NCBI RefSeq assembly: GCF_001006305.1
Contig: NZ_LBHJ01000008.1
Span: forward strand, 1 to 64,000
Source of the DNA: Silvibacterium bohemicum
GTDB lineage: Bacteria > Acidobacteriota > Terriglobia > Terriglobales > Acidobacteriaceae
Direction: 5' to 3'
Length of the DNA: 64,000 bases
Shown in pieces: positions 6,510-59,861 of the stretch. The notes under the pieces were generated by a model. It did not search any database, had not been told where the DNA came from, and saw only the letters and a list, made by a program, of their open reading frames with translations. A program made the position numbers and the translations under genes. Positions within the stretch are counted from its first letter, which is position 1; each line of letters opens with the position of its first letter.

Positions 6510-6740
6510 TCACTCAGGCTCAATACTTTCCATCCCGGTCCTTCTATAACCTCTTAGAAAGTCGATAAGGATACTGCCCTGGCACTTGTGCTGATTCTCA
6601 AAGTCGAGAAGATCCGCTTCGATGACCGAGCTTCCTACCGTCCTTGAGCAGGCCATACAGATTGAATCGTAGTATTGGGCAACGCCGTTGAATCGATGGC
6701 TGAATCGGGAGTCAGGAAGATGTTGAGAGGATGTCGCCAT
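6510..6740 (-). CDS. 76-residue CxxC/HxC small protein, paralogue B
   Basis: Full-length paralogue of the protein encoded at 5953-6183: same length, same CxxC (DSICMACSRTVGSS) and HKC elements, same EADLL and ILIDF blocks. The divergent positions are spread through the protein, so this is an old duplication and not a recent copy. Start is ATG at 6740, with only a distant GGAG (about 13 bases) upstream. Translational coupling to the gene just upstream (6772-6969, 31-bp gap, same strand) may explain the weak site. Predicted zinc-binding cytoplasmic protein of unknown role. A redox- or RNA-related role is possible but not shown. Confidence 0.7.
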   Translation of the reverse strand: MATSSQHLPDSRFSHRFNGVAQYYDSICMACSRTVGSSVIEADLLDFENQHKCQGSILIDFLRGYRRTGMESIEPE

Positions 6741-6771
6741 AGTGTGGGGGCTCCAGGGTTGGTAGAAGAAG

Positions 6772-6969
6772 TCACGAGCTATGTGGTGTAAATGGGGCTA
6801 TCTGAGGTTTGTGGCAGCTTACTTCTGCATGAGTGTCTTGCCAGCCCATTTGCCAGTGCAGCGGTTCCTTGCTGTCGAATGGCCTTCCGGCAAGGCAGGC
6901 CTGCACGCCGTTATAGTAAGAGTTCCAAAATTTTTGAACTTCAGGATGATATAAGGTAAGATTTGCCAC
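6772..6969 (-). CDS. 65-residue protein resembling ribosome modulation factor
   Basis: GTG start at 6969 with an excellent GGAGG 8 bases upstream. Residues about 18-50 (YYNGVQACLAGRP...WQMGWQDTHAE) have the spacing of ribosome modulation factor: Gly-x-x-Ala, then AGR, then W-x-x-GW with an acidic/Ala end. RMF dimerises 70S ribosomes into 100S particles in stationary phase in gammaproteobacteria; assigning that role here is inference from a short motif. The C-terminal tail (SCHKPQIAPF) is not RMF-like. The gene precedes paralogue B by 31 bp and has the CCTAGG palindrome 82 bp upstream, so the two are probably co-regulated. Confidence 0.55.
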   Translation of the reverse strand: MANLTLYHPEVQKFWNSYYNGVQACLAGRPFDSKEPLHWQMGWQDTHAEVSCHKPQIAPFTPHSS

Positions 6970-7050
6970 GAACTAGGCCTCCACAATTGAGCGGTAGTTT
7001 GGGCGCAAATGGCCTTTCATCTAACCTATCTAATCGTAGAGGACTTACTG

Positions 7051-7068
7051 CCTAGGTGATTACCTAGG
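7051..7068. promoter_or_regulatory. 18-bp CCTAGGT-N4-ACCTAGG palindrome (site 2)
   Basis: Perfect 7-bp arms (7051-7057 and 7062-7068) with a 4-base spacer. It lies 82 bp upstream of the GTG at 6969. On the - strand a TAGATA hexamer at about 7025-7030 could be the -10, which would put the palindrome over the -35 region, as for a class II activator. The same architecture occurs at 6328-6345. Confidence 0.6.
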
Positions 7069-7397
7069 TTTCCTTCTCCTTTTCCATAGGCTTCCTGTGG
7101 GAAACAACGCCCGCCCGAAAGCGTTCTTTTTGCATCTAAATTTTGTCAACCCAGGCAGACGGGCGGAGAAGGCAGATGCTCCTCGGAACCTGACGGGACC
7201 GCCTATGTCCATCCGCCAGATGCCGATGAACATGCAGAGATATCAGGATGAAGGATCGCACGAGTCGACTCCTCAAGGTCCAATACCGGCGCTAAATTGT
7301 GATCGCGATTATCGACTGAAAATCTCGGTGACCAGGACAAGGCAGCATGAGGGGCCGGCTAATATATCCCTTTGATTGGAAGATATCTAAAAATCGA
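7069..7397. other. Intergenic, no gene supported
   Basis: About 330 bp between the small-protein island and tRNA-Ser. An open frame from a GTG at 7097 (+) has no ribosome binding site, no domain and low-complexity content, so I leave it out. Confidence 0.4.
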
Positions 7398-54872: not shown

Positions 54873-55167
54873 TTGTGCAATAAACTCGCTTGTCGTTTGT
54901 ATTTGAATGGCGATGAAACGCGTGCGTGAAATAAATCAGAGCGTTGACGACGCAAAGACCCTATGTACAAATACTCTGCCTCAATAGTAGGCAAGCAGCG
55001 CAGAGAACGCAACAACTCGAAGAGGATTATCAAGCAGTTAGCGGCAACCCAAATTGCGGCTATTTATTCCCGAGTTATGCGGAGAATCAAGATGTGCATG
55101 GGCGCGATGCGTGCGCAATGCTCTAATCGTTTCAGCTAGCCTGTTCTGCCACCTGCCCATGCACACT

Positions 55168-56055
55168 ATGCGAACGATATTGAGCCGCCGCCGTTTTCTT
55201 GCCGTCACCGCTCTTGCTACGCCTGCTCTTCTTCATGCGATGCCGGAGGAATTCAGCACCTTGCCTACAGCTCTCGCGCGGCTCGAACAGACCAGCGGCG
55301 GCCGCCTCGGCGTGAGCGTGCTCGACACTGCAAATGGTACGCGCACAGGCCATCGTGCCGACGAGCGCTTTCCCATGTGCAGCACCTTCAAGTTTCTGCT
55401 GGCCTCCGCGGTGTTGCAGCGCGTCGATAGCCATGTCGAGGGCCATCGCGAGACGCTCGATCGCGCCATTTCAATTCCTCCCAAGCCGCTGGTGCCCTAC
55501 TCGCCGCTCACTGAGCCGCATGCCGGTGGAACCATGACCATCTCCGATCTCTGCCACGCCGCGTTGACGCGCAGCGACAATACCGCCGCGAATCTTCTGC
55601 TCGAAAGCATCGGCGGTCCCTCGGGCATCACCGCGTTTTCGCGCTCCATTGGAGACCAGGTCACGCGGCTTGATCGCACCGAGACATCGCTGAATGAATC
55701 GCTAGCCGGCGATCCACGCGATACCACTTCGCCTCGGGCTATGGCCGACGATTTGAAATCCGTGCTGCTGGGAAATGTGCTTTCTTCGGTTTCGCGCGAT
55801 CAGCTGACACAGTGGATGGAAGCGAACCTCACCGGCCTGGAACGCCTGCGGGCAAATCTGCCGCAGGGCTGGCGCGCAGCCGACAAAACCGGCTCGAACG
55901 GCGAGCACACCACCAATGACATCGGTGTCTTCTGGCCTGTGGGGCGCCCGCCGGTCATCGTCACCGCCTACATCACGCAATGTCCCGGCCAGGAGAGCAA
56001 GCGGGGAGCGATGCTTGCCGAGGTCGGCAGGCTGGTTCGACTGTCGCTCGTTTAA
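55168..56055 (+). CDS. Class A beta-lactamase
   Basis: 295 residues. A twin-arginine-type signal (SRRRFLAVTALATPALLHA) is expected, cutting after residue 24. Active-site motifs: Ser72-x-x-Lys75 (CSTFK), SDN 136-138, Glu172 and Asn176 (ETSLNES), KTG 240-242 (DKTGSNG). The Cys before the Ser and the KTGS/TTNDIGVFWP wording resemble the CTX-M/PenA side. The site equivalent to Cys238 is Asn, so the carbapenemase-type disulfide is absent. Chromosomal resistance-type gene; start at 55168 or 55159, no good ribosome site. No ampR-like regulator adjacent. Confidence 0.92.
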   Translation: MRTILSRRRFLAVTALATPALLHAMPEEFSTLPTALARLEQTSGGRLGVSVLDTANGTRTGHRADERFPMCSTFKFLLASAVLQRVDSHVEGHRETLDRAISIPPKPLVPYSPLTEPHAGGTMTISDLCHAALTRSDNTAANLLLESIGGPSGITAFSRSIGDQVTRLDRTETSLNESLAGDPRDTTSPRAMADDLKSVLLGNVLSSVSRDQLTQWMEANLTGLERLRANLPQGWRAADKTGSNGEHTTNDIGVFWPVGRPPVIVTAYITQCPGQESKRGAMLAEVGRLVRLSLV

Positions 56056-57930: not shown

Positions 57931-59631
57931 CTACCACTGACCCCAGTCGCCGCGCAGCAGAACCCATGCCGCGAGCAGCAGATTGCTGGTCGCGTGGGCC
58001 ACGACTGCGTCGCCGATTCTGCCCCGCCACTTGAGTACGCCTGCGAAGGCGAGCCCGGCCACGATGCCCGCCAGCCAGTGCCGGCCGTGCATCGCGCCAA
58101 AGAGAGCGGAGGAGATGCAGACGGACAAGATGCTCAGCGTACGAAATGGCACCTCGTCGAAGCTGCGGCTCATGAGGCGGCGCGTGAGGTAGCCGCGGAA
58201 GGCAAGCTCTTCGGCGATGGGCACCGTGATGATCGCAGCGGCGGTGCGGAAGGCGATCCAGGCCACTCGCGCGTGCGGGGTCAGAGCTGCCAGGGAGGCG
58301 CCCAGGGTGTTGGCCGCATCTTCCTTTTTCAACCACTCCGGTGCGATCCAGACCAGAAAGATGGCCAGTCCGGTCACTGGCGCCAGCCAGCCGAAGCGCC
58401 AGTCGAGTTTCTTGTACTCATGCCGAAAATGCCAGAGGGCGATGGCGGCGGCCAGAAAGCGCAAAGGATAGAGCCATTCGAAAGTGCCCGATGCCGCCTT
58501 GGAGACAAAAGATGCGGCCAGGATGGCAAGGAAGGGAACCAGATAGGCTCCGGTTGCTGCCGACTCTCCGCTTTCGGTGTGGACTGCGATTTTGCTATCA
58601 CCCGTCGCTGCGATTTCCGAGCTATGCACTCCGTCTGCCGGAAGCCCGGCGTAGGTCGGCGTGGCGCGCACCCAGGAGAGCTTGCGCGTCGCCATCGAAA
58701 AGGTGAGGGCGACACCGGTGAAGGCGATCCAGCCCGCCTGCGAGTGGAAGCCGACCATGGCGATATCGCCCGCGCCCGCGTTCCCGATCAGGATGATGGC
58801 GCAGATGCGGACAATATTGAGCACCCAGACGAAGAGCATCGCCGCTGGAATGAGCAGCAAGGCCTGCGGGAAGCGATTTTCCTTGCGGAAATACCACAGC
58901 CAGACCACGGTGAAGACCAGCACCAGGCCCAGGCCTTCCAACCCCGAGCACTGCTCCCTTACCGTAACGGCAAAGCGCTGGGTGCCGATGATGTAGGTCT
59001 GCGGATCGACGATGACGTTGGGCAGAAAGATACGGAGCACCGCGTCGACGGATCGGAACGCGATCGCCTGCAGAGCGCTGCCGCCGCCGAGCAGGGGATT
59101 TCCCCACATCGCCTGCAGCGGACTGCGCAGGAGTGCCGCCACCAGCCCGGCCAACGTAGCGATCAGCCAGATGGGATTGGTGATGCGAAAGGCTCTGATC
59201 CACGCCTGAAGCGGCAGGCAGGAGAGAGCCAGAAGCGTCACCGAGATAAGAAGAACGCTGCTGGCGAAGATGTGTGCCGGCGCTGCGTAGGGGTGATACT
59301 TGGGGCCGCGTGGAGCAATCACATAGGGCAGCCAGATGATCAGCACGCCGGCCAGGTGATAAATGTACCAGCGTTTATTGAATGGGATCTCGAGGCGATC
59401 CGCCTTCAATGCCGAGTAGCCGAGGCCCAGAAAGACCGCGAAGGCGACGATGCCGAAGGGTGCGAGAATGCCGAAGATGGCCGCGCGGCGCGAGATGGTC
59501 GCCAGCAGCAGGCAATCGCAGCACAGGGTTGCGGCGAGGAAATAGAAACGGCCGAGGAGGTAACGCGGAAGACTAAAAACCAGCCTTGGCCGAAAGCGAG
59601 CATTCCCGGCCAAGGCTGAGTTTGAATCCAT
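57931..59631 (-). CDS. Exosortase E-type / CAAX-protease fusion (XrtE-like)
   Basis: About 566 residues, many membrane helices. The exosortase half (about 1-320) has the catalytic Cys230 (QCSGLEG), Arg277 (NIVRIC) and His298 (GFHSQAGW). A linker (about 325-365) joins it to a CPBP/CAAX protease half with Glu476-Glu477 and Arg481 (EELAFRG), His517 (AMHGR) and His548 (VAHAT). Numbering counts from a TTG two codons upstream at 59637. Exosortases cut C-terminal sorting signals and transfer the protein onto an envelope acceptor. This fused type is described as exosortase E/protease of the VPEID-CTERM system. Its substrate is encoded 17 bp upstream. Confidence 0.9.
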   Translation of the reverse strand: MDSNSALAGNARFRPRLVFSLPRYLLGRFYFLAATLCCDCLLLATISRRAAIFGILAPFGIVAFAVFLGLGYSALKADRLEIPFNKRWYIYHLAGVLIIWLPYVIAPRGPKYHPYAAPAHIFASSVLLISVTLLALSCLPLQAWIRAFRITNPIWLIATLAGLVAALLRSPLQAMWGNPLLGGGSALQAIAFRSVDAVLRIFLPNVIVDPQTYIIGTQRFAVTVREQCSGLEGLGLVLVFTVVWLWYFRKENRFPQALLLIPAAMLFVWVLNIVRICAIILIGNAGAGDIAMVGFHSQAGWIAFTGVALTFSMATRKLSWVRATPTYAGLPADGVHSSEIAATGDSKIAVHTESGESAATGAYLVPFLAILAASFVSKAASGTFEWLYPLRFLAAAIALWHFRHEYKKLDWRFGWLAPVTGLAIFLVWIAPEWLKKEDAANTLGASLAALTPHARVAWIAFRTAAAIITVPIAEELAFRGYLTRRLMSRSFDEVPFRTLSILSVCISSALFGAMHGRHWLAGIVAGLAFAGVLKWRGRIGDAVVAHATSNLLLAAWVLLRGDWGQW

Positions 59632-59648
59632 AGACAATGGTGCTCCGC

Positions 59649-59861
59649 TTACTTCCTCTTGCGGGCGCGCATAACTGTCAGCGTTCCTGCCAGCAGGGTG
59701 ATGCCACTGAATGCAAGGCTTGGATCAACTTCAGGAGCCGAAGGGGCCTCGTGGCCTGGGCCTGGGTCATGGGGCCAGGGCCTGTCGTACGCATGAGCCA
59801 TCACACCCGTACCAAGCGCCAGTCCTACAGCCAGGGTTGAATACCTGAAAAGTTTCTTCAT
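59649..59861 (-). CDS. VPEID-CTERM-like sorting substrate, 70 residues
   Basis: A signal peptide (MKKLFRYSTL...VMAHA, cut after 24) is followed by about 17 Pro/His/Asp/Gly-rich residues (YDRPWPHDPGPGHEAPS). The sorting signal is APEVDP (42-47), one transmembrane helix (48-64) and the basic tail RARKRK. This matches the VPEID-CTERM plan with Ala for Val and Val-Asp for Ile-Asp. After signal-peptide cleavage and sorting, hardly 20 residues would remain as exported product. The ATG at 59861 is preferred over the GTG at 59867. It precedes the exosortase gene by 17 bp; the two form a one-substrate system. Confidence 0.85.
   Translation of the reverse strand: MKKLFRYSTLAVGLALGTGVMAHAYDRPWPHDPGPGHEAPSAPEVDPSLAFSGITLLAGTLTVMRARKRK

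What the first reader, a model, noticed from the sequence alone, without database searches (positions are those of the whole stretch)
57931..59861. Exosortase/CAAX-protease fusion paired with a single, almost bodiless sorting substrate
The exosortase has intact Cys/Arg/His, and the fused CPBP protease also has its metal motifs. The adjacent 70-residue protein has signal peptide, about 17 Pro/His/Asp-rich residues, APEVDP, helix and RARKRK. The two genes are 17 bp apart. Known from family knowledge: XrtE/VPEID-CTERM systems often have one dedicated target. Inferred: the product is a short surface-linked or released peptide, possibly an anchor, metal-binding tag or signal. What it does is undescribed as far as I know.
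Basis: partly seen in the sequence, partly recalled or inferred. Interest (0 to 1): 0.75.

Follow-up and report, generated by a model that had tools for sequence, protein, structure and literature searches.

The report
Sorting enzyme with nearly cargo-free substrate
A soil bacterium carries a known type of membrane sorting enzyme next to one tiny dedicated partner, and relatives suggest that what is preserved in such partners is the sorting tag and not any protein it carries, which raises the question of what the enzyme is for.

Summary
Window 57931-59637(-) encodes exosortase E fused to a CPBP (glutamic) protease, over the TIGR04162 cut-off, with catalytic residues intact. The 70-aa gene upstream (59649-59861, 17 bp away) carries the only tail of this type found in the genome. 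It misses the VPEID-CTERM model (TIGR04161) but is homologous to it.

In 150 genomes of the order, enzyme and tail occur in the same 10, neither in the other 140. In 250 genomes around a Bryobacterales genome: 47 both, 3 enzyme only, 4 tail only.

'Almost bodiless' is the rule, and more extreme elsewhere: predicted bodies have a median of 6 residues, with up to 8 tail genes per genome. In nine gene pairs from other acidobacteria the tail is strongly constrained (pN/pS 0.07), the five residues before it far less (0.60). Body length changed 7-12 times on a quick enzyme tree.

No third gene is general. In some genomes a fatty-acid-hydroxylase gene abuts the tail gene (17 of 17 strong hits), mostly convergent.

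Against: 13 of 85 enzyme loci also have full-size PEP-CTERM-like proteins within about 8 kb, possible further clients.

Best reading: a dedicated two-gene module in which the processed tag matters more than cargo. That function is inferred.

The parts
57931..59637 (-). exosortase E / CPBP protease fusion (XrtE), 568 aa from TTG 59637; ATG alternative at 59631
   Evidence: TIGR04162 199.7 bits over cut-off 150; translation
58690..59637 (-). exosortase half (about residues 1-316); catalytic C230, R277, H298
   Evidence: TIGR04178 match at residues 224-316; residues in 73 of 73 rows
57931..58560 (-). CPBP glutamic protease half (about residues 360-568); E476, E477, R481, H517, H548, N552
   Evidence: PF02517 residues 460-554, TIGR03008 residues 380-568, conservation
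59649..59861 (-). mini substrate gene, 70 aa (ATG 59861, stop 59651-59649)
   Evidence: translation; A2 search E 2.4e-27 (A2 contains this protein), next best in the genome 0.12
59790..59861 (-). predicted signal peptide, 24 aa, ending AHA
   Evidence: crude cleavage rule
59736..59789 (-). body, 18 aa, Pro-rich, poorly conserved between relatives
59652..59735 (-). sorting tail PEVDP + helix + RARKRK, 28 aa
   Evidence: tail HMMs; A3 search

Best explanation
This is a two-gene exosortase E module with one dedicated substrate. Sec exports the small protein and signal peptidase removes its N-terminus, leaving a stub held by the C-terminal helix. XrtE's Cys/Arg/His site cuts at the PE motif and passes the stub, by analogy with archaeosortase, to an amine- or hydroxyl-bearing acceptor, most likely a lipid. 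The fused CPBP protease then acts on the leftover helix. In the family the cargo is not what is preserved: the tail is. The substrate is therefore best seen as a consumable tag or donor and not as a displayed protein. Shown here by computation: pairing, co-occurrence, intact catalytic residues, cargo turnover, and selection on the tail in relatives. Inferred: signal-peptide cleavage, cut site, acceptor, order of the two proteolytic steps, and biological role.
For: Same 10 of 150 genomes hold XrtE over cut-off and tail. All 43 XrtE genomes searched hold 1-8 tails at E <= 0.01. 47 both / 3 / 4 / 196 neither in 250 genomes. 73 of 85 loci have the tail gene within 1.2 kb. Among open frames of 90 aa or more, no cluster but XrtE is shared by more than 8 of 85 loci. 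Median body 6 aa. pN/pS tail 0.07, signal peptide 0.33, five residues before PE 0.60. Short versus long body changes 7 (starred branches only) to 12 times on a quick XrtE tree. Lipid acceptor by analogy: archaeosortase ArtA depends on PssA/PssD (PMC7157517, passages).
Against: No biochemistry. Signal-peptide cleavage was called by a crude rule. The selection result rests on nine pairs from other acidobacteria (five are paralogues within one genome, where gene conversion could mimic constraint), not on the window gene; in one copy (L144) the E of the PE motif is K. 13 of 85 XrtE loci have full-size proteins with PEP-CTERM-like tails within about 8 kb (one checked passes TIGR02595 on its tail): these may be further clients with real cargo, and such tails were searched in the window (none) but not genome-wide. 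CPBP residues are partly lost in 3 of 73 rows (L044, L092, L100) while the exosortase site stays. Some substrates do have bodies (L108, about 240 aa; L115 and L105, 135 and 115 aa in all). L049 and L113 have ample flanks and no adjacent substrate.
Confidence: 0.45

Rival explanations
1. Ordinary dedicated exosortase E system: the product is simply a short surface-anchored peptide (a spacer or coat) whose presence matters but whose sequence does not.
For: The pairing is already curated by name (TIGR04162 'VPEID-CTERM system'; TIGR04161). The window's Pro-rich 18-residue body and similar Pro-rich bodies of order relatives look like spacers.
Against: In many relatives the predicted body is 3-5 residues (53 of 129), short for a coat, and its length turns over repeatedly.
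Confidence: 0.3
2. The small protein is not the client that matters but a two-helix subunit, adaptor or pseudo-substrate that regulates or stabilises XrtE, which sorts other proteins, for example PEP-CTERM ones.
For: Strong tail conservation; near-strict pairing; PEP-CTERM-like proteins near XrtE in 13 of 85 loci; in-frame fusion of substrate and enzyme in one MAG (L048); tail helix moderately confident (block means 65-79) in a read-through model.
Against: Up to 8 tail genes per genome, many away from XrtE and in arrays of 2-4, which fits a consumable client better than a 1:1 subunit. The window itself has no other candidate tail.
Confidence: 0.18
3. Degenerate relic of a PEP-CTERM protein that lost its cargo.
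For: Bodies shrink and differ freely; broken or decayed copies exist (L004; L049; L101).
Against: The tail is under strong purifying selection in the pairs tested (pN/pS 0.07) and the pairing is kept across phyla.
Confidence: 0.05

Closest known systems
Exosortase E/protease with VPEID-CTERM (NCBIfam TIGR04162 / TIGR04161)
   Same: Same enzyme fusion over the curated cut-off; same kind of small adjacent partner; Methylobacter-group partners in my set (L105, L111, L115) pass the TIGR04161 cut-off.
   Different: The window's tail gets no TIGR04161 hit. Cargo-free bodies, tandem arrays and hydroxylase-linked copies are not stated in anything I could read; the curators' full model descriptions were not available to me.
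PEP-CTERM/EpsH (Haft et al. 2006, PMC1569441, passages read)
   Same: Signal peptide, motif + helix + basic tail, multi-pass enzyme with a catalytic Cys. That paper already reports four EpsH-CAAX protease fusions.
   Different: There PEP-CTERM tends to occur many times per genome (median eight) on diverse proteins, always with exopolysaccharide genes. Here one tiny substrate of this tail type; whether exopolysaccharide genes are linked was not tested.
Archaeosortase ArtA/PGF-CTERM with PssA and PssD (PMC7157517, passages read)
   Same: Exosortase-like enzyme whose processing depends on lipid-synthesis partners, with lipid attachment of the substrate.
   Different: The substrate studied there is the large S-layer glycoprotein; here the neighbour gene, in some lineages only, is a fatty-acid hydroxylase.
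MrtJ/JDVT-CTERM and myxosortase (PMC11980579, passages read)
   Same: CPBP protease acting in sorting; MrtJ forms a two-gene neighbourhood with a single target.
   Different: The tail has an invariant Cys, absent from the window's small protein.

Membership tests
Exosortase E/protease (TIGR04162) | score over curated cut-off 150 bits | tested here: met
   199.7 bits
Exosortase E/protease (TIGR04162) | Cys/Arg/His of exosortase and Glu-Glu/His/His-Asn of CPBP in one chain | tested here: met
   P0001 residues 230, 277, 298, 476, 477, 517, 548, 552
VPEID-CTERM sorting domain (TIGR04161) | score over curated cut-off 33 bits | tested here: not met
   no hit for P0002 at E <= 1 or E <= 10; relatives L105, L111, L115 pass
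VPEID-CTERM sorting domain (TIGR04161) | motif + helix + basic tail homologous to accepted members | tested here: met
   HMM of 14 tails from elsewhere, which includes Methylomicrobium L105, scores P0002 31.2 bits
Dedicated sorting pair | single enzyme and single substrate in the genome | tested here: inconclusive
   one exosortase and one tail of this type; PEP-CTERM tails were searched in the window only (none)
Exosortase substrates | proteolytic processing at the motif and anchoring | not testable with these tools
   needs biochemistry

The most novel reading that the evidence does not exclude
XrtE systems are cargo-free by design. The tiny substrate is a stoichiometrically consumed acyl donor, and XrtE caps a membrane lipid with a di- to hexapeptide (or a short Pro-rich peptide, as here). 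Need for dose explains the tandem copies, and in Bryobacterales-type genomes the abutting fatty-acid hydroxylase prepares the acceptor lipid. A protein-sorting enzyme would then have become a lipid-modifying one.
Probability: 0.15. Interest if true: 0.85.

Novelty: new variant of a known kind. Interest (0 to 1): 0.57.

Why it matters
Exosortases are thought to exist to anchor proteins. A family in which the enzyme and the sorting tag persist while the cargo shrinks to a few little-constrained residues separates the two, and gives a minimal, genetically simple system in cultured bacteria for finding what exosortases attach their substrates to. For archaeosortase the exact site and lipid are called unclear in a passage read here (PMC11980579).

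Tried and rejected
Third universal gene: clustering of 878 open frames of at least 90 aa from 85 loci gave nothing beyond XrtE in more than 8 loci; smaller genes were not clustered. Hydroxylase link: real adjacency, but 14 of 17 pairs are convergent, so not an operon, and no member at E <= 1e-25 in the window genome or the nine other order genomes; kept as a lead only. Viral contigs: no relative confirmed. Fold searches of the fusion model: no Foldseek hit with E <= 0.001; the best VIA-align row is SagB-SpdC, Z 6.7, rmsd 5.7, 176 aligned, over the CPBP half; no PDB sequence matched at E <= 1; uninformative. Read-through model: coordinates are not readable, so docking cannot be judged. A first alignment of the fused frame with separate substrates misplaced the substrates (A6) and was dropped. 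Metal-binding body: His and Asp not kept in relatives.

Rows dropped or limits: body table, 135 hits over 30 bits, 6 without a start by my rule, 129 listed, 2 plainly mis-started (L102 at 2108, L151 at 1434). Body values for the tree were set by hand from that table, some changed by eye or estimated, with 10 residues as the limit, and 7 of 73 rows left without a value; the tree is the quick one, the careful search was not finished. In the 85-locus count the 12 misses are: enzyme next to a contig end (L046, L054, L055, L077, L094, L114; L077 and L114 do have upstream sequence), weak candidates below my 25-bit limit (L060, L092, L108), a copy 4 kb away (L053), none (L049, L113; L049 has a 17-bit relic). 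Whole-genome searches of 250 genomes scored only part of the candidates per genome (10, 5 and up to 32), so their counts are lower bounds. TIGR04162 at E <= 0.001 also rings below its cut-off in 70 further order genomes and in 4 of 14 controls; only over-cut-off matches were used there.

Full report
What is there. On the minus strand the window encodes, 17 bp apart, a 70-aa protein (59649-59861) and a 568-aa membrane protein (57931-59637). The large one is exosortase E fused to a CPBP protease: TIGR04162 199.7 bits (cut-off 150), TIGR03008 129.5, TIGR04178 51.9, PF02517 and PF09721. All the catalytic residues looked for are present; in 73 aligned rows C230, R277, H298, E476, E477 and R481 never vary, H517 is kept in 70, H548 in 72, N552 in 71. 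AlphaFold gives a confident model (pLDDT 88.7, pTM 0.78).

The small protein. It has a signal peptide, about 18 Pro-rich residues, then PEVDP, a helix and RARKRK. NCBIfam does not name it: TIGR04161 (VPEID-CTERM) gives no hit. It is nevertheless homologous: an HMM of 14 tails from elsewhere scores it 31.2 bits, against 6.2 for the best other frame of the window and 7.1 for the best of 2000 shuffles, and Methylobacter-group partners, one of whose tails is in that HMM, pass TIGR04161. The genome holds one exosortase and one such tail (E 2.4e-27; next best 0.12). PEP-CTERM-like tails were looked for in the window only, where the small protein is the sole candidate of 573 frames.

Co-occurrence. 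Of 150 genomes of the same order, 10 have XrtE over the cut-off and the same 10, and no other, have the tail at E <= 0.001. The tail alignment contains sequences from nine of those 10, so presence there is expected; absence in the other 140, one of them in the window's genus (G059), is the test. The 10 lie in four genera and are not independent. In 43 XrtE genomes, 33 of them reached through a scan of named genomes, 43 have tails. In 250 genomes drawn from the order of G159 (its record is titled Bryobacterales), 50 have XrtE (E <= 1e-25; 46 over cut-off) and 51 have tails (E <= 1e-6): 47 both, 3 XrtE only (G212, G330, G370), 4 tail only (G185, G217, G359, G387), 196 neither (lower bounds, since not all candidates were scored). 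Of 85 non-redundant XrtE loci, 73 have a tail gene within 1.2 kb: 58 upstream on the same strand, 10 downstream on the same strand, 5 downstream opposite; 16 of the 73 have 2-5 copies. Six of the 12 misses have the enzyme next to a contig end.

Cargo. I listed 129 distinct substrate proteins with a predicted start and cleavage (crude rules). The exported body between signal peptide and PE motif has a median of 6 residues, and 78 of 129 have 8 or fewer, e.g. TNT, VPAT, GSVNA. Two long outliers (L102, L151) are mis-started; L108, below my 30-bit limit, has bodies of about 200 residues in proteins of 237-256 aa. In nine pairs from other acidobacteria (four between two genomes, five paralogous) pN/pS is 0.07 for the tail, 0.33 for the signal peptide and 0.60 for the five residues before PE. 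Gene conversion between paralogues could add to the tail's low value, and one copy (L144) has lost the E of PE. On a quick XrtE tree, short versus long body changes at least 7 times on starred branches and 12 by parsimony. So in the family the tail is preserved and the cargo is not. The window's own gene was not rate-tested.

Neighbours. Among frames of 90 aa or more no third gene accompanies XrtE generally: the next cluster occurs in 8 of 85 loci. In Bryobacterales-type genomes many tail genes lie away from XrtE in arrays of 1-4, and beside several of these sits a fatty-acid hydroxylase (PF04116) with conserved histidine boxes. In 250 genomes searched with that subfamily (the best 10 candidates per genome scored), all 17 hits of 300 bits or more (16 genomes) have a tail gene next to them, including 8 of 8 not used to build the model (one of these, L156, had been seen earlier, and another, L144, is a near relative of a seed). 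Of the 12 weaker hits 2 do, and 3 (one of them among those 2) lie next to XrtE. Orientation is convergent in 14, same-strand in 1, divergent in 2, so this is conserved neighbourhood and not co-transcription. The window genome and the nine other order genomes have no member at E <= 1e-25. Against a purely cargo-free view, 13 of the 85 loci contain 15 frames of 195-670 aa with PEP-CTERM-like tails; the tail of one passes TIGR02595 (20.9 bits, cut-off 16). Which exosortase serves them is unknown.

Mechanism. Exosortase-type cleavage at PE and transfer of the stub follows from family knowledge. A lipid acceptor is suggested by the dependence of archaeosortase ArtA on PssA/PssD (PMC7157517, passages) and, weakly, by the hydroxylase link. 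The CPBP half probably handles the leftover helix; its loss of catalytic residues in L044 suggests that this step may be dispensable. A regulator or adaptor role for the small protein is disfavoured by multi-copy arrays away from XrtE, but not excluded.

Known and new. The fusion (Haft 2006, PMC1569441, passages) and the pairing (NCBIfam names) are known. In the held library I found no paper on VPEID-CTERM, XrtE or this exosortase E (two papers hold the words 'exosortase E', seen in the listing only), nor one holding exosortase with sterol desaturase or with Acidobacteria and PEP-CTERM; Haft 2012 is not held. Within those searches the cargo-free bodies, selection on the tail, repeated body turnover and hydroxylase-linked arrays are undescribed.

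Context. The locus is syntenic with the same-genus genome G026 (matches over LysR, epimerase, queG, csp, XrtE, YihY and SpoIIE-like genes, named by my reading), so it is probably a vertically kept chromosomal module in this genus, though G059 of the same genus lacks it.

Noticed in passing
window 55054-56055 (+): A gene that reads like a class A beta-lactamase or serine hydrolase (STFK and KTG motifs, recalled, not family-tested); the DNA between its flanking matches is about 1 kb shorter in the syntenic place of same-genus genome G026 and shows no match to it.
   Followed up: partly
L048:7707-9563: Substrate and XrtE are in one open frame without a stop between them (653 aa stop to stop): a natural fusion or a lost stop in a MAG.
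   Followed up: partly
L044:7914-9608 (same as L003): Acidicapsa dinghuensis XrtE keeps the exosortase triad but has F for H517 and G for N552 in the CPBP half, with an intact substrate gene beside it.
   Followed up: partly
L101:1601-1891: Substrate gene interrupted between signal peptide and tail by an insertion that carries an inverted repeat.
   Followed up: no
L126:4116-4843, L135:3372-3788, L132:3759-4363, L125:3480-4333: Arrays of 2-4 tail genes without XrtE in the fetched stretch, abutting a fatty-acid hydroxylase gene.
   Followed up: yes
L005:1003-1254, L006:855-1112, L002:991-1242: These three substrates share a body with two cysteines.
   Followed up: no
L108:3564-4334 and 6518-7231: A Planctomycetota locus with two 237-256-aa proteins ending in a PEI(N/H) tail: the clearest exception with a real body.
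   Followed up: no
L004:3165-3410 (-): Apparently decayed second copy of the substrate between the intact copy and XrtE.
   Followed up: no
L040, L043, L045, L048, L056, L082, L083, L086, L101, L102, L107, L108, L109: Proteins with classical PEP-CTERM-like tails lie within about 8 kb of XrtE in these 13 of 85 loci.
   Followed up: partly
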